Shown here one piece after another: positions 12,698-28,928 of a stretch of 64,000 nucleotides of DNA. The translations under genes and the position numbers were made by a program. Numbering within the stretch: position 1 is the first letter of the stretch; every line of letters starts with the position of its first letter. Source of the stretch: Lachnospiraceae bacterium MA2020 (GTDB lineage: Bacteria > Bacillota > Clostridia > Lachnospirales > Lachnospiraceae); the NCBI GenBank assembly GCA_000746015.1, contig JQKK01000004.1:1-64000 (forward strand), read 5' to 3'. The notes beneath the pieces are model-generated. The model searched no databases and was not told the DNA's origin. It was given only the letters and a program-made list of their open reading frames with translations.

Positions 12698-13840
12698 ATG
12701 CGCAATTTAAGAAATAAAGAAAAACTTAATATAGTACATTTTGGTCAGAAAAACTGCATGATAGCAATAGGTGGAGTAGAGGTAGTGGTTGCAGAGATAG
12801 CTACCAGACAGGCAGCTATGGGGCATCATGTTACCTGTATCAACCGTGATATGGACTATGGGGATATCAAGGCACCAAAGCCTAAAAAGTGGAAGGGTAT
12901 CCGCATGAAGTATGTGCCTACAATACCTATAAAGGGCCTTGCTGCAGTTACTTCGGCCTTTTTTGCAACCTTAAGCTGCGCTTTTGGAAACTATGATGTT
13001 GTGCATATACATACTGAAGGGGTCTCTGCATTTTGCTGGCTTTTGAAGCTTTGCGGCAAGAAGGTTATCTGTCACAATCACGGCATAGACTGGATGAGAG
13101 AAAAGTGGAGCGGAAGCTATGGCTCTCTTTTTATTCACTACGGTGAGAAAATGGCTGCTAAATACGCAGATGAGTTAATAGTACTCAGTAGTGATGTTAA
13201 GCAGTATTTTAGTGATGTGTATGGCAGAGAGACTGTCTATATTCCAAACGCAGTTGACAGGTACGATTACGAAGAGCCAAACTTGATAAAGAAAAAATTT
13301 GGTCTTGAGAAAGACAGTTATATTCTTTTTCTGGCAAGACTTGTGCCGGAAAAGAGAGTTAAGCTGCTTATAGAGGCATTTAGAGGTGTTAATACTGACA
13401 AGAAGCTTGTGATAGCAGGAGATACTTCTGATACCGAAAACTACTATAAGAAAATCAAGAAGGCTGCAAATGGTGACAAAAGAATTGTATTTACCGGGTT
13501 TGCAGATGACAGTCTTAAAGCAGAGTTATACAGCAATTCCTATGTTTATGTCCTGCCATCAGATCTTGAAGGTATGCCTATGTGCCTTTTGGAAGCAATG
13601 AGCTATGGCAATTGCTGTCTTACATCGGATATAAGCGAGTGTACAGAAGTAATAGGTGATAAAGGGCTGAGCTTCACGAGAGGTATACTTGAGGATCTCA
13701 GAGCCAAGCTTCAGATGCTCTGTGATGATCCTGATATGGTAGCAGGCTACAAGTCAGAGGCTGCTGATTATATATGCAGCAGATATAAGTGGCAGGATGT
13801 CGTTAAAAAGATTATGGAGCTCTATAGGAAACAGCCATGA
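12698..13840 (+). CDS. Glycosyltransferase family 4
   Basis: 380 residues with a GT-B fold. The N-terminal half has the donor-independent opening (IAIGGVEVVVAEIATRQAAMGH) and the C-terminal half the nucleotide-sugar site (ILFLARLVPEKRVKLLIEAF, then PSDLEGMPMCLLEAMSYG, where the E-x7-E motif lies). Cytoplasmic. It adds one sugar during repeat-unit assembly on the lipid carrier; donor and acceptor are unknown. It is the first gene of the polysaccharide operon, and its stop overlaps the next start by ATGA. Confidence 0.9.
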   Translation: MRNLRNKEKLNIVHFGQKNCMIAIGGVEVVVAEIATRQAAMGHHVTCINRDMDYGDIKAPKPKKWKGIRMKYVPTIPIKGLAAVTSAFFATLSCAFGNYDVVHIHTEGVSAFCWLLKLCGKKVICHNHGIDWMREKWSGSYGSLFIHYGEKMAAKYADELIVLSSDVKQYFSDVYGRETVYIPNAVDRYDYEEPNLIKKKFGLEKDSYILFLARLVPEKRVKLLIEAFRGVNTDKKLVIAGDTSDTENYYKKIKKAANGDKRIVFTGFADDSLKAELYSNSYVYVLPSDLEGMPMCLLEAMSYGNCCLTSDISECTEVIGDKGLSFTRGILEDLRAKLQMLCDDPDMVAGYKSEAADYICSRYKWQDVVKKIMELYRKQP

Positions 13841-15045
13841 AGATATTGATGATAAATAAATTTCTGCATCACAATGGCGGATCAGAAACATATATCCTGA
13901 ATCTTGGACGGGCTCTTAGTAAAAAAGGCCATGAGGTCGAGTATTTTGGCATGGAGCACAAGGGCAGGGAAGTTGGTAATTCAGTTGAAGCATATACCTC
14001 TGATATGGACTTTCATAGCAATAGTGTTTTTTCCATGCTGAGCTATCCTGTGAAGACTATATATTCATGGGAAGCAAGAAAGCAGATCAGAAGGGTACTT
14101 GATGATTTTAAGCCGGATGTATGTCATATCAATAATTTTAATTACCAGCTTACGCCTTCTATAATAGTAGAGATTGTTAAATGGAGAAGTGAATCAAAGA
14201 AGAGCTGCAGGCTCATTTTTACGGCTCATGATTATCAGCTTATTTGTCCGAATCACCTTTGTAACAATCCAAATACAAGCGAAAATTGTGAGAAATGTCT
14301 GGGAGGACATTTCTTTAATTGTGTCTCGGGAAAATGTATTCACGGCTCAACTGCTAAATCAGTTGTCGGAGCTTTAGAGGCAGTATATTGGAACAGACGC
14401 GATATATACAGTTATTTTGATAAAATAATCTGCTGTTCTGATTTCCTTAAAACGAAGATGGACAGTAATCCGACATTTGCCGGTAAGACTATAGCAATGC
14501 ATAATTTTATCGATGATGTCGAGCGCATACAGACCAAGAAGAGAGATTATGTCCTTTATTTTGGACGGTATTCTGCTGAGAAGGGCATAGGTACATTGCT
14601 TGAGGTATGTAAAAGACTTCCTGATGTCAGGTTTATATTTGCAGGTAAGGGACCTCTCGAGAGTGAGGTAGAGAGCGTATCAAATGTAAAAAATGTAGGA
14701 TTTCAGACAGCCGAGTCGCTAGAAAAACTTATACGTGAGGCCAGATTTTCTGTATATCCGTCAGAATGGTATGAAAACTGCCCATATTCCGTGATGGAAA
14801 GTCAGATGTATGGTACACCGGTTGTTGGAGCTGACATTGGCGGCATTCCGGAGCTTATAAGAGATGGCTATACGGGAGAGCTCTTTGAAAGCGGAAATGT
14901 CGAAGAACTTACAGCTACGATAAAGAAGCTGTGGGATGACAGGGCTTTGACGGATAAATATACAGAGCTTTGTCTTAAAACGGTGAGATTTGATACACCT
15001 GAGGAGTATGTAGACAAGATAATAAATATCTATGGTAACTGTTAA
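13837..15045 (+). CDS. Glycosyltransferase family 4 with cysteine-rich insert
   Basis: 402 residues with a GT-B fold. It starts MKILMINKFLHHNGGSETYI and has the C-terminal signature YFGRYSAEKGIGTLLEVC and the E-x7-E region YPSEWYENCPYSVMESQMYG. Between them sits a Cys-rich stretch of about residues 130-165 (ICPNHLCNN, CEKCLGGHF, CVSGKC), a known variant of this family that may bind a metal. The start overlaps the preceding stop by four bases, so the two are translationally coupled. Likely the second sugar transfer in the same repeat unit. Confidence 0.9.
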   Translation: MKILMINKFLHHNGGSETYILNLGRALSKKGHEVEYFGMEHKGREVGNSVEAYTSDMDFHSNSVFSMLSYPVKTIYSWEARKQIRRVLDDFKPDVCHINNFNYQLTPSIIVEIVKWRSESKKSCRLIFTAHDYQLICPNHLCNNPNTSENCEKCLGGHFFNCVSGKCIHGSTAKSVVGALEAVYWNRRDIYSYFDKIICCSDFLKTKMDSNPTFAGKTIAMHNFIDDVERIQTKKRDYVLYFGRYSAEKGIGTLLEVCKRLPDVRFIFAGKGPLESEVESVSNVKNVGFQTAESLEKLIREARFSVYPSEWYENCPYSVMESQMYGTPVVGADIGGIPELIRDGYTGELFESGNVEELTATIKKLWDDRALTDKYTELCLKTVRFDTPEEYVDKIINIYGNC

Positions 15046-15066: not shown

Positions 15067-16113
15067 ATGATATATTATATAGCAGAGAAAAAAGATAAAA
15101 ATAACAATTCTACGGAAAAGGCTCCGTACGATATAGAGGTAGTTTGTAAAAAACTGGGTTACAAAGAGCTTGTTTTTAGTCCGAAGAATACTGAAGGGAC
15201 TGTGAAAAAACTAAGCAATATTATAGAATGTGCTTTTGACTGGATCTGTACTTTGTTAAAGCTTAAGGCGGGAGATATTTTAATATATCAGTATCCTATG
15301 GCGTGTATGCCGTTGTCTGTAAAAGCCATACCTCTGTTAAAAAAGAAGGGAGTTAAGCTTATAGCCCTGATACATGATCTGAATTCAGTGAGGTATGCTT
15401 TAGGTGGATATTCTGCAAAAAAGCTTGATTTTTATAAAAGATGCGATATGAAGCTTAAAGAGTTTGATGTTGTGATATGTCATAATGATTCCATGAAAAA
15501 GCTTTTGCATAAGAGTGGAATGGTGGAGGATTTGCAGAAGATAGTCACACTTGAGGTTTTTGATTACTTGTATTCTGGTGATCTGAAAGACAGGAAACGT
15601 GATAATACTGTAGCAATAGCGGGAAACCTAAGCTCGTCAAAAGCAAGATATATTTATGAACCTAAGGATATCAGGCTTAACCTTTTTGGCATTAATTGTG
15701 AAAAAAATCTTTCAGATAATATAAGGTATTTTGGATCATATGACGCAAATGATCTTCCGGGTGCGATGGAAGGGGACTTTGGGCTTGTATGGGATGGAGA
15801 TGAAGCGGATACCTGTTCCGGATCATATGGAGAATATCTGAGATACAATAATCCGCATAAGTTATCACTTTATGTCGCGTCTAATATGCCTGTTATCATC
15901 TGGAGACAGGCTGCCTGTGCTGTTCTTGTAGAAAAATATAAAATAGGTTTTTCTGTAGATTCTTTGAATGAGATAAGTGAAGTTATAGGTAATATGACAG
16001 ATTCTGAGTATCAGACTATCAAGGAAAATGTTATAAAATTTGGAGATAAGCTTAGGAGCGGATATCACACAGAGAAAGCAATCAAGGCAGGACTTGAGTT
16101 GCTCGGAGTGTGA
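15067..16113 (+). CDS. Glycosyltransferase, galactofuranosyltransferase-like
   Basis: 348 residues from the ATG at 15067; a TTG at 15058 in the same frame is possible and neither start has a strong RBS. The sequence has the features of the beta-1,6-galactofuranosyltransferase-like GT-B family seen in lactic acid bacterial polysaccharide loci: YYIAEKKDKNNNSTEKAPYDIE at the start, ALIHDLNSVRY, VICHNDSMKKLL, and near the end FGLVWDGDE and YNNPHKLSLYVASNMPVI. Whether the donor is UDP-galactofuranose is not shown; no UDP-galactopyranose mutase lies in the window. It is co-transcribed, and its stop overlaps the next gene. Confidence 0.75.
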   Translation: MIYYIAEKKDKNNNSTEKAPYDIEVVCKKLGYKELVFSPKNTEGTVKKLSNIIECAFDWICTLLKLKAGDILIYQYPMACMPLSVKAIPLLKKKGVKLIALIHDLNSVRYALGGYSAKKLDFYKRCDMKLKEFDVVICHNDSMKKLLHKSGMVEDLQKIVTLEVFDYLYSGDLKDRKRDNTVAIAGNLSSSKARYIYEPKDIRLNLFGINCEKNLSDNIRYFGSYDANDLPGAMEGDFGLVWDGDEADTCSGSYGEYLRYNNPHKLSLYVASNMPVIIWRQAACAVLVEKYKIGFSVDSLNEISEVIGNMTDSEYQTIKENVIKFGDKLRSGYHTEKAIKAGLELLGV

Positions 16114-19100
16114 TGTTTTTATTAGGAATAATGCCAAAAAATAAATCTATAAAAATAAATTTCATTATGAATGTCATCCTGACTATGTCATCGATGATCT
16201 TTCCTTTGATTACTTTCCCGTATGTGTCTAGAATTCTTACTCCTATTGGTACGGGAAAGGTTTCTTTTTCATATTCTCTTATTAGTTATTTTTTAATGAT
16301 AGCGCAGTTGGGCATTCCGACCTACGGAATACGAGTTTGTGCTGGAGTACGTGATGATAAGGAAAAGCTGACGCGCTCAGTACATGAACTGTTAAGTATA
16401 AGCCTTATAATGACATTTTTTTCGTATCTTGTTTTTGCACTGGTGCTGATCTTCGTGCCAAGGTTACAAGAGGACAGATGCCTGTATATCGTAATGAGCC
16501 TGAGCATAATACTGGATTCACTTGGTATGGAATGGCTGTATAAGGCACTTGAACAATATACATATATTGCTGTCCGCTCGGTATTCTTCAAATTTATAGC
16601 ATTGGTAGCAATATTCTTATTTATACATAACAGATCTGACTATGTTATATATGGAGCTATCTTCATTTTTGCCGCTTCAGCTTCGAATATCGTAAATTTG
16701 ATATCAGTACATAAATACATAGGATTTAAGCCGGTTGGAGGTTACAATTTAAAAAAACACATCAAGTCAGTACTTATATTTTTTTCACTTGCATGTGCGG
16801 CGACAATCTATACAAACTTAGATTCTGTAATGCTTGGATTTATGAAAACTGATGCTGATGTGGGATATTATAATGCTGCCATAAAGGTTAAAAATGTCCT
16901 GGTTAGTATAGTTACATCATTAGGTGTAGTTCTATTGCCGAGAGCTTCTTACTACGTTGAACATGGTGAAATTGCGGCTTTCAGGCGGATATATGTTAAG
17001 GCAATAAATTTTGTTATGATCGCTGCGGTACCATTATTTGTCTATGGCACACAGTTTGCGAGAGAATGTGTGTTATTTTTATCTGGTAATGCGTATACCC
17101 CTTCGATCTTTCCTATGCAGATCATAATGCCTACAGTACTTTTTATAGGTATGACTAACATTTTAGGAATACAGATATTAGTACCGCTTGGAAAGGAAAA
17201 AGAAGTACTATATAGTGAGATTGCAGGAGCTGTTGTAGATGTGGTATTGAATTTTATTTTAATTCCACAGATGGGAGCTGCAGGAGCTGCAATAGGAACG
17301 CTTGCAGCCGAATTGGTAGTGCTGTTAGTACAATATTTTTCGTTGAAAGATGAAGTAACAGGTGCTCTGAAAGAGATAGGATATCATAAGCTGTTATGTG
17401 CAGTTTTTGTAGCGTATGCGGCAGGCTGCTTTGTAAAAAAGCTGAATTACGGAATTACAGCAACGATTTTTTTATCAGGAATAGTTTTCTTTGGTACATA
17501 CATTTTTGTAATGTTACTTACGAAGGAGAAGCTTATGCTAGAATTATTCAATACTGTGGTTGATAAATTTAAGATTATAACAGAAAAGGCAGTATCAGCG
17601 GTGGATAATAGGGTAACTGACGGTGTCAGAAGAGCTTCTGAAATGTTTTTTCTTGTGGTAATGGTCCTGTATCTTGCATTTTCAGAGTTCAAGATAACGA
17701 TGTTTGATCTGCCATTTCCGGATAATTCATATACTCTTATGATGTTTCCAATGCTGCTGGCTGTGGTCTTGCAGTGGATAACACATATCAGAAAGCTTAA
17801 TAAGGTGATATTAGGCGGAATGATAATAATGCTGTATGGCATTGTATATGTAACAAATATTACGGAATATAATGGTTATGGTCACATGATACTATTAGCC
17901 ATGATGACAGCAGGTTGTATAGGAATTCAATATGAAAAGATTCTTAAAGTCAGTGTGATGACGGTAGTATCTGTACTTCTCATAACTTTCATGGCGGCAT
18001 CCATTGGGGCTGCGCAGAATCTTGTGTATTATGCAGGTGGATGGAGACTGTCGCTCAGAGGTTCACTTGGTATATGGTATCCGACTGACTGTGCAGCGAT
18101 AATTCTGTTTATAATGATGATGGCCTGGGTAGCATTTAAGAAAATACCAGATATCATAATGCTTATTTGTAGTGTTGCAGGTCTGTTTTTTATAAAAAAT
18201 TATTGCGATGGTAAGTGCTCCGTAATATGTATCATATTATTCGCATTTGTGATAACATATAAGATTTTTGAAGAAAAATTTATAGAAAATAAGCAGTCTT
18301 TTAGATGGTTTAAGCAGGTTGTGAATTTTCTTGTTCTTATTTCAGTCCCTCTTGGAGCTGCAGTGATGTATGCATTATCAATACTTTATGGCAAAGGCAA
18401 TGCAATTGCGTATAAGATTGATAAGCACATTGACAATAGAGTCAGGTTAAGCTGGGACGCTATTGATGAATATGGTATTAAGCCTTTTGGAACTAATTTC
18501 GAAATGAACGGTGCCGGAATGGCTCTTGTAAATGATCAGGGAAAGTATAATTACCTTGACAGTTCTTATATCAATATCCTTGTCAGATATGGATATGTGC
18601 TGGCAGCAGTAGTCCTTGCAATGTGGATTTATATGATCTATAGGGCAATAAAGCTTAATGACAGACGCATGCTTCTCGTAATGGCAGTAGTGGCTGTACA
18701 TTCATTTGAGGAGCAGCATTTTGTTGAATCAATTTATAATCCACTGATCGCAATGTGTCTTTGTGAATTTGTGAGCAGTGGAGAAAAGTCATTGCGATTG
18801 AATGATTTAAGAAAATTGAAGGGAAAGGCCGGTTATCTAGCCGGCATAGTTACAGCGGCATTGGTAGTACTTGGCCTCCCTAAGATTTTCACTGTGCTTA
18901 GGACAGTTATAGATATATTTGGCACTAAGAGCAACACATTTATGACAATGGCTGCTTTTGTTATCATAGTATCAACTTTTGCGGCAGTGATACTTATGGT
19001 ATATAGTATTTCTGCTATCGGACAGGCAAAAATCGAAAAAGCAAAGATAAGCCGCAAAGCCATGACCTCTTTTGTGATGGGTGCAGCTATTTCGCTCATT

Positions 19101-21800
19101 TTAAGTGCGATGAGTTTTATTGTTATAAAGTCGGGAAAAGAACTCTATGCTAAACAGGTCGAAGCTGATAAAACTGCAATTGATATCATCATGAACAATA
19201 AGACACATAAGGTTTATGTAAATGAATATCCGCAGGTTTACATTGATGCTTATAAGGGCTTTTCTGAGACAATCTGGTCAGAAGACGACATGGCAAGATA
19301 TCATAGAGCTACAGTTCTGATCAGCAAGGATCATGATTCGACATGTTTTTTGAACCGAGGATATTTGTATACACAGATTTCTGACTATACAGGAGTCTAT
19401 ACAAATGATGATGCTGTTATAAAAGCTCTTGAAGATAGTGGTTATCATGTTACCGGGTTCTATAGCAGTATTAAGAATATAGATATTGATGAAGAAGGAA
19501 ATATCGAGCCAACAATGCTGTTTGGCAGCAAGTATGTAATGACTGTAGGACTTAGTCTTGAGGGCAATAGTGCTGATACGGGCGGCAGAGTAGGAACTGT
19601 TAATTTTAAGGCGTATGAGACTGATACAGTTATAGCCTCAAGAGATATCATGCTTTCAGATTTTGATGAGAGTGGAAATGCTTCTGTAGATATTACTCTT
19701 AATGCTGGAAATGGTGTGCCGGAGCTTAAATATGAAATTAAGCCGATTGAAGGAAATATCATAAGGATGACTTCATGCAGCTATAAGAAGAGGCCGGATA
19801 TTGATAAGCACAGTTTCTACAATGAAATATATCAGGTGGTAAGAAGTGAGTATTATGATGCTGATGGAAACAGAATAACTGCAGGTAGCGGCGAGTCAGC
19901 ATGTGAATACGAGTATGATAAAAAGCGAAATACGACAGTTATCAGGTATTATGGAATTGATGATAAACCTTTGATCATAAGCGCTGGATATGCTGAAATA
20001 CATAGAGAATATAATGATCTCAGATTTGTTATAAAAGAGAGTTATTATGGTACTGATGGAAAGCCTATCGCGCTTGGCGACGGACACGCATCAGATTCCA
20101 GAGTTGTTGATGTTAAGGGCAATATTATTGATCAGAAATATTATGATATCGAGGGAAATCCGGTAATGCTCACAAGTGGTTATGCAGAGCTTAAGCGTGA
20201 GTATGATGGTAAAAAAAGGATAACCAGAGAAGAATATCGTGATATTAATGGTGAGCTTATTAATCTTACAAACGGATATGCTGCTATTGAAAAAGACTAC
20301 GATGATAATGACAATGTAATAGCGCAGCGTTATTTTGGAAGTGATGATAAGCATGCAATGACGATATGGGGCTATGCAGAGATTCACAGGGTATATGATG
20401 ATCTCAATAGGATCATAGAAGAAAGCTATTTTAATGCAGATGGTGATCCGGTAATAACTACTTCAGGCTATGCAGAGATTCATAGGGAATATGATGCTAT
20501 GAACAGGATAGTTGCCGAGAGTTACTACGGAACAGATGGCAACCCTATCGCACTTACAGCAGGGCAGGCTTCTGAAAAACGTGTATATAATCAGAACGGA
20601 AATCTTATTGCACAAAAGTACTATGGCACTGATGGACAGCCAAGACTCATGACATGGGGTTATGCAGAGATACATAAGGCATATAATGGTAAAAATCAGG
20701 TCATCAGAGAGGAATATTTTGGAACAGATGGCAATCCGATAGAGCTTTCAAACGGACAGGCTGCTGTTGAGACAGAATATGATGACAGCGGTACGCCAAA
20801 TGTGTTAAGATACTATGGCGCTGATGGAAACTTAAAGATTACAAATAGCGGTTATGCAGAGATCAGAAGAGAATACAATGATCTGAGGCAGCTTGTAGCT
20901 GAGAGCTATTACGGAACAGACGAGCAGCCGGTAGCACTTGCATCAGGACAGGCTTCTGACAATCGCGGATATGATGGCGCAGGAAACATGACCTATCAGA
21001 AATTCTTTGATGTCAGCGGTAATGCTGTAGTGATCACTAATGGATACGCTGAGATCCATAGAGAGTTTAATGCTAAAAAGCAGGTAGTTGCCGAAAGTTA
21101 CTTTGGTACAGATGGAAATCCGATAGCATTGGGAAGCGGGCAGGCATCTGATACAAGAGAGCTTGATGACAGAGGAAACTGCATTGTACAGAAGTACTTT
21201 GATGTTAGCGGTAATTCTGTTATCATCACAAGTGGTTTTGCAGAAATCCATCGTGTATTTAACGATAAAAATCAGGTTACACGCGAAGAATATTATGGTA
21301 CTGATGGGGCATTGATGGCTGTTCCTACAGGACAGGCTTCAGTTGACAGGGAAAATGATGCTGTTGGAAATGTCCTCACTTATAAGTACTATGATGTAAG
21401 CGGAAATATGGTTATGACTACATGGGGATATGCAGAGCTTCATCGCACCTATAATGATAAAAGGCAGATCACAGGTGAGAGTTACTATGGCACTGACGGC
21501 AATCTGATAGCGTTGGGAAGCGGACAGGCGTCCGATACGAGAGAGCTCGATGAGAGGGGAAACTGTGTGGTTCAGAAGTACTATGGGGTTTCCGGAAATC
21601 TGATACTCAGAACTGATGGCTTTGCAGAGATACGTAGGGTATTTAATGCACAGAATAAAGTGACAAATGAGCAGTATTTTGGCCTGAATGGAGAGCCGGT
21701 AGAAAACAGCAGCGGCTTTGCTTCTAAAGACATAGAGTATGATGATAAAGGAAATTACGTAAGTGAGAAACACTATAATCTGAGTGGAGAATTGGTTTAA
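16113..21800 (+). CDS. Wzx flippase - Wzy polymerase - repeat-domain fusion
   Basis: 1895 residues from the ATG at 16113 (GGAG four bases upstream of the TGATG overlap). Part 1 (about 1-490) is a polysaccharide-transport flippase: it begins NFIMNVILTMSSMIFPLITF, has about 12-14 membrane segments and the late motif GAAGAAIGTLAAELVV. Part 2 (about 500-905) is a second set of roughly 10 membrane segments with O-antigen polymerase/ligase traits, including RLSWDAIDEYGIKPFGTNF followed by NYLDSSYINILVRYGYVLA. Part 3: two or three more membrane segments to about 1005, then an outside region with a beta-rich domain (about 1085-1220) and 20 repeats of 32 residues to the end. There is no frameshift or internal stop. 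It would flip, polymerise and perhaps bind the same glycan. Confidence 0.85.
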   Translation: MFLLGIMPKNKSIKINFIMNVILTMSSMIFPLITFPYVSRILTPIGTGKVSFSYSLISYFLMIAQLGIPTYGIRVCAGVRDDKEKLTRSVHELLSISLIMTFFSYLVFALVLIFVPRLQEDRCLYIVMSLSIILDSLGMEWLYKALEQYTYIAVRSVFFKFIALVAIFLFIHNRSDYVIYGAIFIFAASASNIVNLISVHKYIGFKPVGGYNLKKHIKSVLIFFSLACAATIYTNLDSVMLGFMKTDADVGYYNAAIKVKNVLVSIVTSLGVVLLPRASYYVEHGEIAAFRRIYVKAINFVMIAAVPLFVYGTQFARECVLFLSGNAYTPSIFPMQIIMPTVLFIGMTNILGIQILVPLGKEKEVLYSEIAGAVVDVVLNFILIPQMGAAGAAIGTLAAELVVLLVQYFSLKDEVTGALKEIGYHKLLCAVFVAYAAGCFVKKLNYGITATIFLSGIVFFGTYIFVMLLTKEKLMLELFNTVVDKFKIITEKAVSAVDNRVTDGVRRASEMFFLVVMVLYLAFSEFKITMFDLPFPDNSYTLMMFPMLLAVVLQWITHIRKLNKVILGGMIIMLYGIVYVTNITEYNGYGHMILLAMMTAGCIGIQYEKILKVSVMTVVSVLLITFMAASIGAAQNLVYYAGGWRLSLRGSLGIWYPTDCAAIILFIMMMAWVAFKKIPDIIMLICSVAGLFFIKNYCDGKCSVICIILFAFVITYKIFEEKFIENKQSFRWFKQVVNFLVLISVPLGAAVMYALSILYGKGNAIAYKIDKHIDNRVRLSWDAIDEYGIKPFGTNFEMNGAGMALVNDQGKYNYLDSSYINILVRYGYVLAAVVLAMWIYMIYRAIKLNDRRMLLVMAVVAVHSFEEQHFVESIYNPLIAMCLCEFVSSGEKSLRLNDLRKLKGKAGYLAGIVTAALVVLGLPKIFTVLRTVIDIFGTKSNTFMTMAAFVIIVSTFAAVILMVYSISAIGQAKIEKAKISRKAMTSFVMGAAISLILSAMSFIVIKSGKELYAKQVEADKTAIDIIMNNKTHKVYVNEYPQVYIDAYKGFSETIWSEDDMARYHRATVLISKDHDSTCFLNRGYLYTQISDYTGVYTNDDAVIKALEDSGYHVTGFYSSIKNIDIDEEGNIEPTMLFGSKYVMTVGLSLEGNSADTGGRVGTVNFKAYETDTVIASRDIMLSDFDESGNASVDITLNAGNGVPELKYEIKPIEGNIIRMTSCSYKKRPDIDKHSFYNEIYQVVRSEYYDADGNRITAGSGESACEYEYDKKRNTTVIRYYGIDDKPLIISAGYAEIHREYNDLRFVIKESYYGTDGKPIALGDGHASDSRVVDVKGNIIDQKYYDIEGNPVMLTSGYAELKREYDGKKRITREEYRDINGELINLTNGYAAIEKDYDDNDNVIAQRYFGSDDKHAMTIWGYAEIHRVYDDLNRIIEESYFNADGDPVITTSGYAEIHREYDAMNRIVAESYYGTDGNPIALTAGQASEKRVYNQNGNLIAQKYYGTDGQPRLMTWGYAEIHKAYNGKNQVIREEYFGTDGNPIELSNGQAAVETEYDDSGTPNVLRYYGADGNLKITNSGYAEIRREYNDLRQLVAESYYGTDEQPVALASGQASDNRGYDGAGNMTYQKFFDVSGNAVVITNGYAEIHREFNAKKQVVAESYFGTDGNPIALGSGQASDTRELDDRGNCIVQKYFDVSGNSVIITSGFAEIHRVFNDKNQVTREEYYGTDGALMAVPTGQASVDRENDAVGNVLTYKYYDVSGNMVMTTWGYAELHRTYNDKRQITGESYYGTDGNLIALGSGQASDTRELDERGNCVVQKYYGVSGNLILRTDGFAEIRRVFNAQNKVTNEQYFGLNGEPVENSSGFASKDIEYDDKGNYVSEKHYNLSGELV
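19890..21797 (+). repeat. Twenty 32-residue (96-bp) tandem repeats
   Basis: The C-terminal 636 residues divide exactly into 19 units of 32 and a last one of 28. Two alternating subtypes appear. Type A begins GYAEIHREYND and contains ESYYGTDGNPIAL. Type B begins GQASDTRELDDRGN and contains QKYFDVSGN. Together they give a 192-bp higher-order period. Units have diverged in DNA but keep the G-x-A start and the YxxxG turn. They resemble RHS/YD-type beta-hairpin repeats, though without the consensus YDxxGRL spacing. Confidence 0.92.
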
Positions 21801-21817
21801 ATAAACGGAGCTATGTG

Positions 21818-22993
21818 ATGAAAGATAATAAAAAGTTGAATGGTACGGTAATCGTAACTTACAGATGTAATGCAAGATGCTCTATGTGCAACAGGTACAA
21901 GGCGCCTTCCAAGCCGGAAGAGGAGATAAGCATTGAGACTATCAAGAAGCTTCCGAGAATGTATTTTACAAATATAACAGGTGGAGAGCCGTTTATCAGA
22001 AATGATATAAAGGAGATCGTAAGAGAACTTTATAAGAAATCTGACAGAATAGTTATCTCTACAAATGGCTTTTTTACAGACAGAATAGTTGATCTGGCTA
22101 AGGAGTTTCCACAGGTTGGAATAAGAATATCGATCGAGGGACTTGAAGCAACAAATAATGAGATCAGAGGACTTGAAAATGGCTATCAGAGAGGCTATCA
22201 GACTCTTAAAAAGCTTCGTGAGATGGGCATGAAGGACGTTGGATTTGGTATGACTGTTCAGGATAGAAATGCACCGGATCTTGTGCCTTTATATGATATT
22301 TCAGACGAGATGGGCATGGAGTTTGCAACAGCTTCACTTCATAATAGTTTCTATTTTGTAGAGGCAAAAAATATCATAAAGAATCGTCCTATGGTTGCAG
22401 CTAATTTTGAACATCTTATAAATAAGCTTCTCAGGAGCAACAGTCCTAAGAAATGGTTTAGGGCATATTTTAACCATGGACTTATCAATTATATATATGG
22501 ACAGCCAAGACTTTTGCCATGTGATATGAGTTTTGATACATTTTTTATTGATCCATATGGTGATGTTATGCCATGCAACGGTACAAAAGATAAAGAGGTA
22601 ATGGGAAACCTTAATGAACAGTCATGGGATGAGCTATGGAATAGTCCGGAAGCTGAGAAGGTCAGAAACAAGGTGCGCCATTGCGACAGACAGTGCTGGA
22701 TGATAGGCTCTGCATCACCTGCTATGCACAAGTATATCTGGAAGCCGATGATGTGGGTACTTGTTCATAAGTTTAAGGCACTGTTTACAAAGACACCTTA
22801 TTCTATGTATGAAAATAAGATCTGTCGCGATTTAAGAGAAGGCAGAGTCACAAAGGAAGAACTTGATAAGTGCAGCACATGTGATATGTGCGCAGTTGTT
22901 AATAATGGACTCAGCGAAGCAAGTCAGGAGCAGCTTAAATACAGGACTGGCGAAGAAATAGTAGCTGAGGATATCAATAATCAGCTTAAATGA
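21818..22993 (+). CDS. Radical SAM/SPASM-type protein
   Basis: 391 residues from the ATG at 21818, with GGAG 7 bases upstream (a GTG directly before it is in frame). The radical SAM cysteines are in YRCNARCSMCNRY near 17-24, followed by the GGEPF motif. A C-terminal SPASM-like set of cysteines is spread over LLPCDMSFDTFFIDPYGDVM, PCNGT, HCDRQCW and CSTCDMC, enough for one or two extra Fe-S clusters. It starts 14 bases after the fusion gene in the polysaccharide cluster. Substrate unknown: a sugar nucleotide, the lipid-linked glycan or the neighbouring repeat protein are all possible. Confidence 0.88.
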   Translation: MKDNKKLNGTVIVTYRCNARCSMCNRYKAPSKPEEEISIETIKKLPRMYFTNITGGEPFIRNDIKEIVRELYKKSDRIVISTNGFFTDRIVDLAKEFPQVGIRISIEGLEATNNEIRGLENGYQRGYQTLKKLREMGMKDVGFGMTVQDRNAPDLVPLYDISDEMGMEFATASLHNSFYFVEAKNIIKNRPMVAANFEHLINKLLRSNSPKKWFRAYFNHGLINYIYGQPRLLPCDMSFDTFFIDPYGDVMPCNGTKDKEVMGNLNEQSWDELWNSPEAEKVRNKVRHCDRQCWMIGSASPAMHKYIWKPMMWVLVHKFKALFTKTPYSMYENKICRDLREGRVTKEELDKCSTCDMCAVVNNGLSEASQEQLKYRTGEEIVAEDINNQLK

Positions 22994-23024: not shown

Positions 23025-23069
23025 CATTTGGTATGTTTTGCAAAAAATAATAGTTAGGAGATTTTGTTT

Positions 23070-24533
23070 ATGTACGAAGAAGAATACGAAGAGACCCTGA
23101 GTCTTACAGACATAGCTGCGTATATCTTACATCATTGGAAGCCTATAATGATCTTGGGCATAGTATTTATGATCGTAGTAGGAGGTCTGCTTTCATTTAA
23201 GGATTATGCTACTATCCAGACTAAATACGGTGATGAAACATATTCATCAATGATACAGGATCTCACTGAGTCACAGGTCAGCAATGCTCAGCAGTTCTAT
23301 AAGAGATATCAGACATATAAGCAGCGTATTGCTGATAACCAGTTCTATCTCGATAACAGCTTGAAGATGAAAATCGATCCAAACAAGGTATCTGTATATA
23401 CTGTTCAGTATCTTGTAAGTTCAGATTATCAGGGCATCATTAATTCATTTACATCAGCAGCACTTGACCTTGATGATTATGAAGAGATGGCAAAAATCAT
23501 GGACGGAAGTGTTGATGCCAGATACATGAACGAGCTTGTATACCTCAGTGGTGATGTACAGCAGGAAGCATTTGACATTGATACAGATAAAGTTGGAGAT
23601 GTTATTAATGGTAATATCTCAAATACTTACAAGGGTGTACTCAATGTAAATATTACTTCAAATGGACGTGACACCTGTGAGAAGCTTGCAGAAGTTGCTG
23701 ACAGAGCAATACAGGCATATTACGATAAGCTTAAGGCAACCGGAGTAAATGCAGAGATCAAGCAGCTTACAACTTCATATTCAGAGAAGGTTGATATGAC
23801 ACTTGCTGAGTTCCAGAGAACACAGAGTGACCAGGGTGCTGATCTTGTTCAGGGCTTCTATAAGTTTGAGACAGATGCTAAGGACTCTCTTGACGAGGAT
23901 GAGTTTGCAGTATTTGAGTACCTTATTCAGAAGGAAGAGCAGGTTACTGATAAGATTCATTGGAAGAGATGGGGCGTTGTAGGTCTTGCCGGCGGTCTTT
24001 TCCTTGGATTTGTAATATATCTTATATCATACCTTGCTATTCCTGGTGTTAAGACATCTGACGAAATTGAGCATATAACAGATGAAAAAGAGCTTGGATC
24101 AGTTATTCAGCCTGCAAAGTACAATTTTGCTGTTGGAAAGATATTCCATATCTGGGCTAACAAGATTAGATTCAGAGGCTTTAATCAGCTTAATGATGAT
24201 GAGTCTATAGCTATTCTTTCTGAGAGAATTACAAGTAATTGCAGCTCAAAAGATGCTAAGAGTGTATTCCTTTTGGCTGATGCTGATGATGAGTATACAC
24301 AGCAGGTAGTAGAAAAGAGTGTTCATGCACTTGAAGGTAAGGGATTCAAGGTGAACTTTGGTAATCCGGATTCTTCAGTTGAGGCACTCAGAGCACTTAA
24401 AGATTCAGATGTAGCAGTACATGCTATCACTATCATGAGAAGCCTTTCAAATTCAGTACGTGCAAATAAGGCAATCTGCGAAGAGAATCAGATTCCTGTA
24501 GTTGGTAACGTTATTATTTATCCACAGGGCTAA
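23070..24533 (+). CDS. Wzz-like polysaccharide chain-length determinant
   Basis: 487 residues from the ATG at 23070, which has TTAGGAG 9 bases upstream. Membrane segment 1 is near 25-45 (IMILGIVFMIVVGGLL). A long extracytoplasmic region of about 260 residues with a coiled-coil part follows, then segment 2 near 300-322 (VVGLAGGLFLGFVIYLISYL). This is the Wzz/co-polymerase layout. The last 130 residues look like the Rossmann core of a BY-kinase (SVFLLADADDEYTQQVVEKS) but lack a Walker A lysine motif and a tyrosine-rich tail. It would set polymer length together with the Wzy part of the upstream fusion. A strong terminator follows. Confidence 0.85.
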   Translation: MYEEEYEETLSLTDIAAYILHHWKPIMILGIVFMIVVGGLLSFKDYATIQTKYGDETYSSMIQDLTESQVSNAQQFYKRYQTYKQRIADNQFYLDNSLKMKIDPNKVSVYTVQYLVSSDYQGIINSFTSAALDLDDYEEMAKIMDGSVDARYMNELVYLSGDVQQEAFDIDTDKVGDVINGNISNTYKGVLNVNITSNGRDTCEKLAEVADRAIQAYYDKLKATGVNAEIKQLTTSYSEKVDMTLAEFQRTQSDQGADLVQGFYKFETDAKDSLDEDEFAVFEYLIQKEEQVTDKIHWKRWGVVGLAGGLFLGFVIYLISYLAIPGVKTSDEIEHITDEKELGSVIQPAKYNFAVGKIFHIWANKIRFRGFNQLNDDESIAILSERITSNCSSKDAKSVFLLADADDEYTQQVVEKSVHALEGKGFKVNFGNPDSSVEALRALKDSDVAVHAITIMRSLSNSVRANKAICEENQIPVVGNVIIYPQG

Positions 24534-24719: not shown

Positions 24720-26270
24720 ATGTTTTCTGGTAGCCGAAAATCACAGCGCAGAGCTTTACTTGTTATTGATTTACTTGCTCAGGTGATTTCTTTTTTTGCA
24801 GCCATTTATATTAGATTTTACGGTACACCCGACTGGGAAAATATGTTTCGTTGGTACAATGGCCTGTATTACATTTTATTGGAATTGGTTATTGCACTTT
24901 ATGTAGTTATATTTTTTGTTAATGATATTAAACATAGACCACTGGTCGAGCAAAATCCGTTTGAAAAGGCTGTGAATGTAATAAAAAACCAGTTGATCAT
25001 GGTGCTGTGTCTTGGATTGCTGCTATATCTTATCAAGCAGGGACTTTGGGCATCACGTGCTGTGGTCGGCCTCATGTTTATATTTGATATAATCATTGAT
25101 ACTGCTTTTCGCTTTATGTATGGCAGATTTCTTTATAAAAATGCCAGAGAAAAGATCGTAAAACGTAAATATATCCTGGTAACGGATAGAAAGTTTGCGG
25201 TATTAGCTGCGCGTCGTATCAATCTTTCAAAGTCACAGTACAGAAAATTTATCGGTATTGTGTATACGGAGGACGAAGTACAGGAAGAACAGGTAGAAGG
25301 TATTACTGTGCTTGGACAGCTTAAGAATCTCAGCCGTATAAAAGAGGAGTATCCATTTGACGAAGTTTTGGTTTATCTGCCAGGCAGAGCAAGACGACAG
25401 ATGGATGAAATGCTGATAAAGAGTTTTGAGCATTTGGGAGTGCCTGTAAACTGGGCTTTCGATTTTATGAATCAGAATGCAGCAGCAGGTCTTATACGTA
25501 AGCTTGGTGAGATAGATGTTATATACTGGTCCGGTATGCTTATAAGAAATGCAGTACTTGGAGTTGAGTTTTGCGTTTCTAATATGTCAGAGGCTGTTCT
25601 TTATATCCGTGATAATATAAAGGAGCTCAGCGGAAAGTATATCTGCCTTTCTAATGTACATACTACAGTTATGGCGCATGAAGATCCTGATTATTGTGAT
25701 GTTCAGAACGGAGCTGCGATCGTCTTTCCGGATGGTGCACCTATTGCCAGAATCCTCAGACATAGAGGTTTTTCAAGAGCGGAAAGGGTGGCAGGACCGG
25801 ATCTGATGCGTGCTATGTTCATATCAGCTATGGATGGTGGTATCTCGATGTATTTTTACGGATCATCAGAAGAAACTATCAGACTTCTTGAGAAGAATAT
25901 CAGATCAACTTATCCAGGTATTGATATAAGGGGATTTGAGTCTCCACCGTTTCGTCAGCTCACGCCTGAGGAAGATAGAGAGGCTATTGAAAGGATCAAT
26001 AATTCCGGGGCAGACATAGTTTGGATTGGTCTTGGGGCACCAAAGCAGGAGAAATGGATGCGAGACCATAAAGATGTTATTAAACCACTAATGATAGGAG
26101 TAGGAGCAGGTTTTGATTTTCATGCAGGTACGATAAAAAGGGCACCTGAATGGATACAGTCAATAGGAATGGAGTGGCTATACAGACTGTTTCAAGACCC
26201 GCGTCGTCTGGTCAGACGATATGTTATAACTAATATCAAGTTTATGTGGTACATGTTTACAAAAAAGTAA
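24720..26270 (+). CDS. Membrane scaffold fused to WecG/TagA/CpsF glycosyltransferase
   Basis: 516 residues. Residues 1-140 have four membrane segments and residues 140-280 a soluble nucleotide-binding-like domain, together the usual N-terminal scaffold of polyprenyl glycosylphosphotransferases. In place of the expected sugar-phosphate transferase domain, residues 280-500 are a GT26 domain: CLSNVHTTVMAHEDPDY, IVFPDGAPIARILRHRG, ERVAGPDLM, ADIVWIGLGAPKQEKWM and GVGAGFDFHAGTIKRAPEW. GT26 enzymes add a sugar such as N-acetylmannosamine(uronate) or a hexose to the lipid-linked primer, so this would be the second sugar step at the membrane. The paralogue next door has the same scaffold with the standard catalytic domain. 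Confidence 0.88.
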   Translation: MFSGSRKSQRRALLVIDLLAQVISFFAAIYIRFYGTPDWENMFRWYNGLYYILLELVIALYVVIFFVNDIKHRPLVEQNPFEKAVNVIKNQLIMVLCLGLLLYLIKQGLWASRAVVGLMFIFDIIIDTAFRFMYGRFLYKNAREKIVKRKYILVTDRKFAVLAARRINLSKSQYRKFIGIVYTEDEVQEEQVEGITVLGQLKNLSRIKEEYPFDEVLVYLPGRARRQMDEMLIKSFEHLGVPVNWAFDFMNQNAAAGLIRKLGEIDVIYWSGMLIRNAVLGVEFCVSNMSEAVLYIRDNIKELSGKYICLSNVHTTVMAHEDPDYCDVQNGAAIVFPDGAPIARILRHRGFSRAERVAGPDLMRAMFISAMDGGISMYFYGSSEETIRLLEKNIRSTYPGIDIRGFESPPFRQLTPEEDREAIERINNSGADIVWIGLGAPKQEKWMRDHKDVIKPLMIGVGAGFDFHAGTIKRAPEWIQSIGMEWLYRLFQDPRRLVRRYVITNIKFMWYMFTKK

Positions 26271-26323: not shown

Positions 26324-27751
26324 ATGCTTTTTCGTACACGTTCCGTAAGGAGATTTGTATTATTCATAATAGACATTATTACACTTATAGTGTCATTCCT
26401 TTTATCATGGTATATCAGATTTGACAATATACACAGCTGGTTTACACTTGATCAGTATCATGACTTATTTATCATGATACTTTGTACAGTGTTGCTTTGC
26501 TATACGCTGGTATTCCTGTTTTGGGATGGACACAGAATGCCGATCATGAAGCAGGGACCTATATTAAAATTTGTATATGTACTTCAAAATCAGATAATCC
26601 TGCTCGGCATGCTGGTGCTTTTCCTTTACCTTGTTCAGCAGAGTTACAATGTATCACGTTATGTTGTGGGTGTAATGTTTGCCATCAATGTATTCTTAAA
26701 TTATTTTACCAGAAGCATGTATGGTGCATGGATTATCAACGTAGCGGGTGCTGGTATCAATGCTACAAACATCATGCTCATTTCGACAAGCGCAGAGGTT
26801 GAAGCGATCATAGATGAGTTTGAAAAAAATAACGATCAGCTTGTCCATATATCATGTATTACAATACTTGATGAAGATATGGTAGGAAAGAAGATCAAGG
26901 GAATCCCTGTTGTGGGAACTATTGATAATTACAAGAATACACATAGACAGAATGTCTATGACGAAGTATTCATAAGGATCCCTTATGAGTTTGAGATGAA
27001 GCTCAAAAAGATGATCACTGACTTTGAAGATATGGGTGTCACAGTTAACCTGAACGTTGAGATATTTAATATTGATTCACATGTTAAGAAAATAAGACAG
27101 TTTGGTGAGTATCAGGTAGTATCATTTGCAGAAGTTGAGCATGATCCGGCATCTCTCCTTGTGAAAAGGATAGTAGATGTGATCGGTGCAGTGGTTGGCC
27201 TTATTATTTGTGGAATAGCAACAATAATCGTCGGTCCTATAATAGTTATAACTTCACCGGGACCTATCTTCTTCTCACAGACACGAATTGGAATTAACGG
27301 AAGAAGATTTCAGATGTATAAGTTCCGTTCAATGTATGCTGATGCAGAAAAGAGAAAAAAAGAGCTTATGGAGAAAAATGAGATGCAGGGACTCATGTTT
27401 AAGATGGAAAATGATCCTCGTATCACACCAATAGGTAGTTTTATCCGTAAGACTTCTATAGACGAGCTTCCTCAGTTTTGGAATGTACTTAAGGGAGATA
27501 TGTCAATTATAGGTACACGTCCGCCAACGGTAGATGAGTATGAGCAGTATAAGAATTATCATATGAGAAGACTTTCAATAAAACCGGGTATTACAGGAAT
27601 GTGGCAGGTGTCCGGACGTTCAGATATACAGGATTTTGAAGAAGTCGTAAAGCTTGATCTTAAGTATATAGACAACTGGTCACTATTGCTCGATGTAAAG
27701 ATTCTTTTCCAGACAGTATGGACAGTAGTGTTTGGTCGTGGAGCCAAATAA
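26324..27751 (+). CDS. Undecaprenyl-phosphate sugar phosphotransferase (initiating enzyme)
   Basis: 475 residues. Four N-terminal membrane segments and a soluble middle domain closely match the upstream gene (RYVVGVMFAINVFLNYFTRS against RAVVGLMFIFDIIIDTAFRF). The C-terminal 200 residues are the bacterial sugar transferase domain: membrane helix after SLLVKRIVDVIGA, then PGPIFFSQTRIGINGRRFQM, YKFRSM, the DPRITPIGSFIRKTSIDELP core and GTRPP, ending KPGITGMWQVSGRSD. It loads the first sugar phosphate on undecaprenyl phosphate and so starts each repeat unit. Start with GGGG 9 bases before ATG. 53 bases separate it from the preceding gene. Confidence 0.95.
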   Translation: MLFRTRSVRRFVLFIIDIITLIVSFLLSWYIRFDNIHSWFTLDQYHDLFIMILCTVLLCYTLVFLFWDGHRMPIMKQGPILKFVYVLQNQIILLGMLVLFLYLVQQSYNVSRYVVGVMFAINVFLNYFTRSMYGAWIINVAGAGINATNIMLISTSAEVEAIIDEFEKNNDQLVHISCITILDEDMVGKKIKGIPVVGTIDNYKNTHRQNVYDEVFIRIPYEFEMKLKKMITDFEDMGVTVNLNVEIFNIDSHVKKIRQFGEYQVVSFAEVEHDPASLLVKRIVDVIGAVVGLIICGIATIIVGPIIVITSPGPIFFSQTRIGINGRRFQMYKFRSMYADAEKRKKELMEKNEMQGLMFKMENDPRITPIGSFIRKTSIDELPQFWNVLKGDMSIIGTRPPTVDEYEQYKNYHMRRLSIKPGITGMWQVSGRSDIQDFEEVVKLDLKYIDNWSLLLDVKILFQTVWTVVFGRGAK

Positions 27752-27830: not shown

Positions 27831-28928
27831 ATGGGAAATAATAAAGTAGCTTTGATAACTGGAGTAACAGGTCAGGATGGTTCATATCTTTCTGAGTTCC
27901 TTTTGGAAAAAGGATATGATGTCCATGGTATTATCCGTCGTTCAAGTGTTGATTTCAGAGAGCGTATAGCTCACCTTGAGGACAATCCACGTTTCCATCT
28001 TCATTATGGTGACCTTAATGATTCACTTAGCCTTATCAAGGTGATCTCACAGTGCAGACCGGATGAAATATATAATCTTGCTGCACAGAGCCATGTTCAG
28101 GTTAGTTTTGATTCTCCGGAGTATACAGAGAATGTTGATGCGGGCGGAGTTTTGAGAGTACTTGAGGCAGTTCGTATTGCAGGACTTGCAGATACATGCC
28201 ACATTTACCAGGCATCTACAAGTGAGCTTTACGGCAAGGTTGAAGAAGTTCCTCAGAATGAAAATACTCCATTCCACCCATATAGCCCATATGCGGTAGC
28301 AAAGCTCTATGGCTACTGGATAGTTCGTGAATATAGAGAAGCATACAATATGTACTGCTGTTCAGGTATCCTTTTTAATCATGAGTCAGAGAGAAGAGGA
28401 GAAACTTTTGTTACAAGAAAGATTTCTCTTGCTGCTGCACGTATCAAGCAGGGTAAGCAGAAGAAACTCTATCTTGGTAATCTTTCATCTCTTAGAGACT
28501 GGGGTTACGCAAAGGACTATGTAGAGTGCATGTGGCTTATTCTTCAGCAGGAGAAGCCTGAAGATTTCGTAATTGCTACAGGTGAGCAGCATAGTGTACG
28601 TGATTTCTGCAAGCTTGCGTTCTACTATGCAGGCATTGAGCTTGAGTTTAAGGGCGAAGGCATAGACGAAAAGGGATATGATAAGGCAACAGGAGAAGTT
28701 CTCGTTGAGGTAAGTCCTGATTTCTATAGACCTACTGATGTTGTAAACCTTTGGGGTGATCCGACTAAGGCAAAGACAAAGCTTAACTGGAATCCTCAGA
28801 AGACCTCTTTCGAAGAGCTTGTAAAGCTTATGGTTGAAAGCGACATGAAGAAGGTTGCAAAAGAGCGTGCTGAAGAATATGTAGATCTCTATAAGGTAGA
28901 GGCTCTCGAGAAGGGATTGGTTAAATAA
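27831..28928 (+). CDS. gmd: GDP-mannose 4,6-dehydratase
   Basis: 365 residues with a Rossmann fold. It starts with the nucleotide motif [10 protein letters not shown], then [25 protein letters not shown], and the catalytic SPYAVAK (Tyr-x3-Lys) with the Ser/Thr partner in ASTSELYG. The length is typical. It converts GDP-mannose to GDP-4-keto-6-deoxymannose. AAAGGA lies 8 bases upstream of ATG. It is followed by manC after 4 bases, giving the substrate-producing enzyme in the same transcript. A 3,5-epimerase/reductase (fucose) or 4-reductase (rhamnose) is not found in the window. Confidence 0.96.

What the first reader, a model, noticed from the sequence alone, without database searches (positions are those of the whole stretch)
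16113..21800. Flippase, polymerase and an extracellular repeat domain in one polypeptide
The reading frame is unbroken for 1895 codons. It shows a complete Wzx-type flippase, then a second complete set of membrane helices with polymerase/ligase traits, then a large outside region of a beta-rich domain and 20 repeats. Wzx and Wzy are normally separate proteins that work together (established knowledge). A fusion would fix their stoichiometry and place a repeat domain at the exit site of the polymer, possibly holding or guiding the glycan at the surface. I do not know of a described protein with this order.
Basis: partly seen in the sequence, partly recalled or inferred. Interest (0 to 1): 0.85.

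Follow-up and report, generated by a model that had tools for sequence, protein, structure and literature searches.

The report
Fused sugar flippase, polymerase and repeats
A Lachnospiraceae bacterium carries one giant membrane protein in which the pump that flips sugar building blocks across the membrane, the enzyme that seems to join them into a chain, and a long outside repeat domain are fused, which suggests the two steps work hand to hand.

Summary
Window 16110-21800 (+) is one open frame of 1896 codons; the likelier start is ATG 16131 (1889 aa). It contains a complete Wzx-type flippase (PF01943, 90.6 bits), a second membrane domain (about aa 510-897), three more helices, an outside domain, and 20 repeats of exactly 32 aa (last 28). 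The middle domain matches no Pfam, NCBIfam or PDB sequence directly. As a family it matches Wzy_C polymerases/ligases by profile comparison (97.6%, E 4.1e-12; controls 6.9% or less) and keeps the loop Arg and Asp of that clan. The repeats are diverged RHS/YD-type. Lachnospiraceae bacterium MC2017 has the same order (flippase 68%, middle 53%, repeats 53.5% identical), so it is no assembly join. It is rare: 1 of 110 matches to this polymerase family (397 genomes) and 1 of 57 close flippase matches (299 genomes). Relatives keep separate, often neighbouring genes. Most likely a bifunctional flippase-polymerase with an outside beta-repeat arm; polymerase rather than ligase activity and the arm's role are inferred. 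Searches of an open-paper library showed no such fusion.

The parts
16131..21800 (+). Fused gene, likelier start ATG 16131 (frame open from GTG 16110); 1889 aa
16131..17534 (+). Domain 1: Wzx/MOP flippase, aa 8-475 (numbered from GTG 16110), 14 hydropathy helices
   Evidence: PF01943 E 1.5e-25, 90.6 bits (cut-off 28.2); PF13440 33.6 bits (cut-off 23)
17535..17636 (+). Linker, aa 476-509, predicted cytoplasmic
   Evidence: 38% identical to MC2017, charged
17637..18800 (+). Domain 2: Wzy-type polymerase/ligase membrane domain, aa 510-897, about 12 helices (hand-adjusted)
   Evidence: profile match to PF04932 family members; mostly free-standing homologues of about 410 aa
18390..18593 (+). Long outside loop of domain 2, aa 761-828, with Arg777 (R-x23-GxG) and Asp817 (D-S-x9-G)
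18843..19130 (+). Three extra helices, aa 912-1007, which put the C-terminus outside
   Evidence: homologous region without flippase or repeats in G144, G086 and G367
19131..19469 (+). Outside domain, aa 1008-1120 (motif GYLYTQISDYTGVYTND), shared with some relatives' polymerases
   Evidence: 57% identical to MC2017
19470..19814 (+). Beta-rich outside domain, aa 1121-1235, fast-evolving (29% identical to MC2017)
   Evidence: possible, weak jelly-roll/CBM6-like Foldseek matches
19890..21797 (+). 20 RHS/YD-type repeats of 32 aa (last 28), aa 1261-1896
   Evidence: homologous repeats pass PF05593
15058..16113 (+). Upstream glycosyltransferase-like gene (PF13439 19.1 bits, below cut-off); overlaps the frame opened at GTG 16110 by 4 bases; a homologue is fused to a polymerase of this family in G165
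12698..13840 (+). Glycosyltransferase of the cluster
13837..15045 (+). Glycosyltransferase of the cluster
21815..22993 (+). Radical SAM/SPASM protein between the fusion and the co-polymerase
23064..24533 (+). Chain-length (Wzz/PCP-like) protein; no Pfam Wzz hit of its own
   Evidence: phmmer 2.6e-19 to MC2017's gene next to its fusion, which passes PF02706 Wzz
24720..26270 (+). CoA_binding_3 + WecG/TagA glycosyltransferase
26324..27751 (+). Priming sugar-phosphate transferase (Bac_transf)
27831..28928 (+). GDP-mannose 4,6-dehydratase type
28933..30255 (+). Nucleotidyltransferase with mannose-6-P isomerase C-terminal domain

Best explanation
One polypeptide carries out two consecutive steps of Wzx/Wzy-dependent polysaccharide synthesis. 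The N-terminal flippase moves the undecaprenyl-diphosphate-linked repeat unit, made by the cluster's glycosyltransferases, to the outer leaflet. The adjoining Wzy-type domain, with its catalytic loop outside, joins it to the growing chain (Arg777 binding diphosphate, Asp817 activating the acceptor), with the separate Wzz-like protein setting chain length. Fusion fixes a 1:1 ratio and places the flippase exit beside the polymerase. Three further helices carry an outside domain and a 20-unit RHS-type beta-repeat arm, most likely a glycan- or wall-contacting arm at the exit site. Shown: order, completeness of the flippase, homology, conservation in two species, rarity, cluster context. Inferred: enzyme activity, coupling, role of the arm.
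For: Flippase over Pfam cut-off. Middle family (21 sequences) vs 29 Wzy_C proteins, hhalign local mode: 97.6%, E 4.1e-12 over 253 columns; controls reversed Wzy_C 6.9%, EpsG 2.3%, reversed EpsG 2.5%, acyltransferase 0.7%, flippase 0.1%, the other two reversed sets 0.5% or less. Global mode: 99.1%, E 1.4e-17, controls up to 15.9%. The window sequence alone, local: 91.9%, E 7e-7; controls at most 1.3%. Arg777 and Asp817 invariant in 21 of 21, the residues expected for inverting clan GT-C1 (PMC10920833 passages). Same fusion in MC2017. Close flippase and this polymerase family co-occur: 13 of 19 polymerase-positive against 24 of 181 other genomes, Fisher 5e-7. No other PF01943 match lies in the window, no PF04932 match on its contig at E 0.001. 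Repeats; a separate repeat protein sits next to a polymerase of this family in G210.
Against: No direct Pfam or NCBIfam polymerase hit for any of 21 family members at E up to 0.1; no PDB sequence hit. The structure model of the middle part failed (pLDDT 35). MC2017 has a separate weak Wzy_C protein two genes downstream (22.2 bits, below cut-off), so there the fused domain might not be the sole polymerase. A second, free-standing member of the polymerase family lies on the same contig about 200 kb away (C3:223165). The window's own repeats do not reach PF05593, and the repeat model has pTM 0.46.
Confidence: 0.72

Rival explanations
1. The middle domain is a ligase (WaaL-like), not a polymerase: it transfers the flipped unit or finished chain to another acceptor such as wall or protein.
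For: Wzy_C/PF04932 covers both; MC2017 has another Wzy_C-like protein two genes away that could be the polymerase.
Against: In the window's own cluster no second candidate was found at the thresholds used; a Wzz-like co-polymerase follows in both species, directly in MC2017 and one gene later in the window; the loop carries Asp, as in SEDS and several inverting polymerases, where the ligase has His.
Confidence: 0.18
2. The repeat arm has no part in synthesis: it is a spacer or adhesion stalk that happens to be attached.
For: Homologous repeats also occur on TIR proteins, VanZ proteins and other membrane proteins; relatives' polymerases with the outside domain occur without repeats.
Against: In G210 the repeat protein is encoded next to a polymerase of this family inside a polysaccharide cluster, G180's lies in one too, and VanZ has been proposed to act on outside lipid-linked saccharides (PMC12419801, passages).
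Confidence: 0.4
3. The frame is a sequencing or assembly error joining two genes.
For: Relatives have separate flippase and polymerase genes, sometimes adjacent.
Against: The same junction with a recognisable linker, in frame through all four parts, in MC2017 (flippase 68%, linker 38%, middle 53%, repeats 53.5% identical).
Confidence: 0.01

Closest known systems
Wzx flippases (PF01943, MOP superfamily)
   Same: Complete domain over the curated cut-off, 14 hydropathy helices; free-standing relatives up to 63% identical
   Different: Carries a polymerase-type domain and an outside repeat region; 54 of 57 close matches found have frames of 524 aa or less
Wzy_C polymerases and O-antigen ligases (PF04932; CAZy clan GT-C1)
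   Same: Profile match, long outside loop near the C-terminal side with conserved Arg and Asp
   Different: No direct Pfam hit; Asp-Ser in place of the His-Asn of the GN2 motif; fused to a flippase
Polymerases of this family fused to other enzymes in Lachnospiraceae
   Same: Same polymerase family, fused to GT4, GT2, WecG plus GT, priming transferase or a DUF1972-type glycosyltransferase
   Different: None of the 15 other long frames contains a flippase
RHS/YD repeats (PF05593; Rhs effectors, teneurins, Tc B/C complexes)
   Same: Two-strand repeat, local fold match; homologous repeats pass PF05593
   Different: Exactly 32-aa units, no domain after the last repeat, membrane-anchored on a biosynthetic protein

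Membership tests
Wzx flippase (PF01943) | Domain score over curated cut-off, nearly full profile | tested here: met
   90.6 bits vs 28.2, profile 4-271 of 274
Wzx flippase (PF01943) | About 14 transmembrane helices (recalled criterion) | tested here: met
   14 hydropathy peaks in aa 1-470
Wzx flippase (PF01943) | Flipping activity | not testable with these tools
   needs biochemistry
Wzy_C polymerase/ligase (PF04932) | Direct Pfam score over cut-off | tested here: not met
   no hit, 0 of 21 family members
Wzy_C polymerase/ligase (PF04932) | Homology by profile comparison with controls | tested here: met
   local 97.6%, E 4.1e-12, controls 6.9% or less; global 99.1%, controls up to 15.9%
Wzy_C polymerase/ligase (PF04932) | Polymerase activity | not testable with these tools
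   needs biochemistry
GT-C1 clan (inverting polymerases, SEDS, O-ligase) | Long outside loop near the C-terminus with conserved Arg and Asp/Glu (His in ligase) | tested here: met
   R and D invariant in 21 of 21; criterion from PMC10920833 passages
GT-C1 clan (inverting polymerases, SEDS, O-ligase) | GT-C fold | tested here: inconclusive
   two-sequence AF2 model failed, pLDDT 35
Type-B pneumococcal Wzy | GN1 motif RX(11-24)GXG | tested here: met
   R777-x23-GAG in the window; 14 of 21 family members, 28 of 29 Wzy_C, controls 9 of 41, so weakly specific
Type-B pneumococcal Wzy | GN2 motif HNX9GX(2-4)G | tested here: not met
   0 of 21; D-S-x9-G in the window instead
RHS repeats (PF05593) | Direct Pfam score over cut-off | tested here: not met
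   window repeats give no hit; homologous repeats in L153, L155, L100 pass 22 bits for the whole protein
RHS repeats (PF05593) | Beta-hairpin repeat fold | tested here: met
   pLDDT about 90 over most repeats; Foldseek ranks 1-21 are Rhs, teneurin or Tc B/C chains, but query TM-scores are 0.11-0.25, so local match only
RHS polymorphic toxin | Variable toxin domain after the RHS core (recalled criterion) | tested here: not met
   frame ends in the last repeat unit
Wzx/Wzy-dependent cluster | Priming transferase, glycosyltransferases and Wzz-like protein with Wzx and Wzy | tested here: met

The most novel reading that the evidence does not exclude
The fusion is a flip-and-join machine that channels each lipid-linked unit from Wzx directly to Wzy, and the 40-strand RHS-type arm (roughly 19 nm if straight, by standard strand spacing, recalled) forms a partial shell or ruler that holds the nascent glycan and sets its length or its path through the wall.
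Probability: 0.22. Interest if true: 0.85.

Novelty: new variant of a known kind. Interest (0 to 1): 0.62.

Why it matters
Wzx and Wzy are normally separate proteins, so it is hard to test whether a flipped unit is handed directly from one to the other. A natural fusion is evidence that they act side by side and gives a single, stoichiometric protein for structure and in vitro work. The wider pattern found here, with this polymerase family fused to glycosyltransferases, a priming transferase and a flippase in different Lachnospiraceae, points to assembly-line organisation of polysaccharide synthesis, and the RHS-type arm is an unexpected partner for such an enzyme.

Tried and rejected
Direct Pfam/NCBIfam and PDB sequence searches of the middle domain gave nothing useful. 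The AF2 model of aa 486-1285 from two sequences failed (pLDDT 35) and is not used. EpsG-type polymerase as identity of the middle domain: rejected (2.3% local, 0.2% global). Relatives in viral contigs: none in three scans. The one scan of named genomes used only two short peptide patterns and found one relative, MC2017, so it is not exhaustive. Toxin reading of the RHS part: rejected, nothing follows the last repeat. Assembly join: rejected. I had taken the C-terminal half of the 931-aa flippase fusion in G192 (L046) for a Wzz-like protein from its topology, and notes 1 and 2 still call it so; profile comparison with the window's Wzz-like protein does not support this (4.2%) and Pfam finds no Wzz there, so it is left unnamed. 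The 655-aa flippase frame in G339 was not looked into. The G142 match to the outside domain (E 5.1e-4) is a long acidic protein without flippase or polymerase parts and was dropped.

Limits of the counts. In the profile tests 29 of 30 Wzy_C loci were used (one over 700 aa left out), 17 of 20 EpsG loci, 17 of 20 acyltransferase loci and 7 of the 8 flippases of the own genome (the window's own left out). One search was run in global mode by an option I set; one search repeats it in local mode. Searches scored only the best 4 or 5 candidates per genome, so their counts are lower bounds. The repeat anchors were found with a pattern on the first four positions, so conservation there is not independent; positions such as 10, 20 and 25 are. 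The Fisher test assumes that the 200 genomes are all within the 299, which the handles suggest but the listings do not prove; the 20-kb proximity was read by eye. The comparison of cluster genes with MC2017 left out about 1.7 kb of its contig.

Full report
Observation. Window 16110-21800 on the + strand is one open frame of 1896 codons. GTG 16110 overlaps the end of the upstream gene by four bases. ATG 16131, with AGGAAT just upstream, is the likelier start because MC2017 and a free-standing relative begin at the matching position. Residue numbers below count from GTG 16110. Hydropathy gives 26 peaks in residues 1-1006 and none over the cut-off in the following 890.

Flippase. Residues 17-280 match PF01943 with 90.6 bits against a cut-off of 28.2 and nearly the full profile; PF13440 also passes when the domain is scanned alone. 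Of eight PF01943 matches in the genome only this one lies in the window.

Middle domain. It has no direct Pfam or NCBIfam hit, no family member of 21 has a polymerase hit at E up to 0.1, and there is no PDB sequence match. It does belong to a family of mostly free-standing proteins of about 410 aa: 19 of 200 family genomes at E 0.001 with the window sequence as query, 81 of 397 at E 1e-10 with the family profile, the own genome counted in both. That family compared with 29 Lachnospiraceae proteins that match PF04932 (Wzy_C) gives, in hhalign's local mode, 97.6% and E 4.1e-12 over 253 columns; controls: reversed Wzy_C 6.9%, EpsG 2.3%, reversed EpsG 2.5%, acyltransferase 0.7%, reversed 0.2%, flippase 0.1%, reversed 0.5%. 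In global mode it is 99.1% and E 1.4e-17 over 380 columns, with controls 10.1%, 0.2%, 15.9%, 0.6%, 0.1%, 0.1% and 0.1% in the same order. The window sequence alone, local, gives 91.9% and E 7e-7, controls 1.3% or less. These E-values are for single comparisons, and reversed controls reach 4e-4 in global mode, so the margin and not the absolute value is the argument.

Catalytic residues. In the long loop, Arg (window 777) and Asp (817) are invariant in 21 of 21 members. In the Wzy_C alignment the Asp falls on the His of the HN motif. Passages of PMC10920833 say that inverting polymerases of clan GT-C1 have one or two conserved Args and, in all families but GT127, an Asp or Glu aligned with the ligase His. 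Passages of PMC12502699 define GN1, which the window sequence fits, and GN2, which it does not. GN1 is only weakly specific: 14 of 21 family members, 28 of 29 Wzy_C, 9 of 41 controls.

Topology. The hand-adjusted helices give 12 in the middle domain and three more, with K+R enriched inside (0.25 against 0.09). Relatives fit this: GT4-type transferases, which use cytoplasmic sugar donors (established knowledge), are fused directly behind the polymerase in G436, G094, G041 and G403, while the region homologous to the three extra helices and outside domain follows it in G144, G086 and G367.

Outside region. Residues 1008-1120 are 57% identical to MC2017, the beta-rich part 1121-1235 only 29%, the repeats 53.5%. 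There are 20 repeats of exactly 32 aa (the last 28); MC2017 has 21. The AF2 model from two sequences gives about pLDDT 90 over most repeats, two strands per unit, overall pTM 0.46. Foldseek's first 21 matches are Rhs effectors, teneurins and Tc B/C complexes, with query TM-scores of only 0.11-0.25, followed by OspA sheets. Homologous repeats in other genomes pass PF05593 RHS_repeat in L153, L155 and L100, though the window's own do not. CBM6 and TNF-type lectin matches of 122-131 columns (E 1.2e-3 to 5.3e-3, where unrelated proteins score alike) may belong to the beta-rich part; the output gives no ranges, so this is weak.

Not an artefact. The named contig JNJK01000040.1 of Lachnospiraceae bacterium MC2017 holds a 1931-codon frame with all four parts in order. 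The same-genus genome G202 has the identical frame on a contig of the same length and is evidently the same record, so this is one second species, not two. Identity to the window is 68% (flippase), 53% (middle), 38% (linker). A Wzz-like gene follows: directly in MC2017, where it passes PF02706 (26.9 bits, cut-off 25.5), and one gene later in the window, where it has no Wzz hit of its own but matches the MC2017 one. Of nine window cluster genes compared, only this one has a homologue at E 1e-10 in the parts of the MC2017 contig compared.

Rarity. Within the genus 7 of 48 genomes have a middle-domain match at E 0.001; the fusion is in two, G000 and G202. G221 keeps only a shortened remnant, near genes that by eye look like transposases. 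In 397 family genomes, 16 of 110 matches have frames over 600 aa. The other 15 were inspected and none has a flippase. Of 57 close flippase matches in 299 genomes, 54 have frames of 524 aa or less; the exceptions are the window, G192 (931 aa, fused to an unnamed membrane protein) and G339 (655 aa, not examined). Both calls scored at most five candidates per genome, so counts are lower bounds. Unfused, the two families keep company: 13 of 19 polymerase-positive genomes also have the close flippase, against 24 of 181 others (Fisher 5e-7), and by the coordinates, read by eye, they lie within 20 kb in 11 of 18 genomes other than the window's own.

Cluster. Two glycosyltransferases and a third weak one, the fusion, a radical SAM protein, a Wzz-like protein, a WecG/TagA transferase, a priming transferase, a GDP-mannose dehydratase and a mannose-type nucleotidyltransferase follow on one strand. 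The upstream weak transferase is 37% identical over 349 aa to one fused to a polymerase of this family in G165. A second, free-standing member of the polymerase family lies about 200 kb away on the same contig, outside the window; no flippase was found in the 19 kb around it.

Repeats elsewhere. Seven of 299 family genomes have them at E 1e-10: the window; a membrane protein in a polysaccharide locus (G180); two TIR proteins (G176, G247); three VanZ proteins (G330, G339, G129). In the genus, G210 has a repeat protein encoded beside a polymerase of this family. A shared theme for several is the outer face of lipid-linked saccharide metabolism; PMC12419801 (passages) proposes that role for VanZ.

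Against the reading. MC2017 has a separate weak Wzy_C protein two genes downstream, so ligase activity of either protein is possible; the middle structure model failed; no activity is shown.

Literature. Searches for Wzx-Wzy fusions in an open PMC library listed no description of one: with six fusion phrases and one search returned no paper; of the listings I read only passages of PMC12004945 (its one use of 'fused' is a PhoA reporter) and of PMC12419801. A search for a MurJ-FtsW natural fusion gave two listings, not opened. Most subscription papers are not held, so absence from print is not shown.

Noticed in passing
L176, L178, L179, L182, L183, L175, L181, L186, L039: Polymerases of the same family are fused to a priming transferase, GT4, WecG plus GT, GT2 or a DUF1972 glycosyltransferase in different Lachnospiraceae: repeated gene fusion within one pathway.
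   Followed up: partly
L154:6568-10860 and L155:6743-10261: TIR domain followed by long RHS-type repeats in one protein (PF13676; in L155 also PF05593 and ThsB_TIR).
   Followed up: partly
L156:5667-6920, L157:7534-8946, L158:7102-8181: RHS-type repeats joined to a C-terminal VanZ domain.
   Followed up: partly
window 24720-26270: CoA_binding_3 domain joined to a WecG/TagA glycosyltransferase, next to a CoA_binding_3 plus Bac_transf protein.
   Followed up: no
L159:4688-4939 (own contig C19): Short stretch homologous to the repeats elsewhere in the same genome, in a 115-aa frame with a stop inside the match.
   Followed up: no
L038:8311-9057: Shortened remnant of the polymerase domain, with transposase-like genes (by eye) nearby, in a same-genus genome.
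   Followed up: partly
L059:14926-16572: Second, weak Wzy_C protein two genes after the fusion in MC2017.
   Followed up: partly
L046:6262-9054: 931-aa protein: flippase fused to an unidentified membrane domain, next to a polymerase of this family.
   Followed up: partly
window 21815-22993: Radical SAM/SPASM gene inside the polysaccharide cluster, between the fusion and the Wzz-like gene.
   Followed up: no
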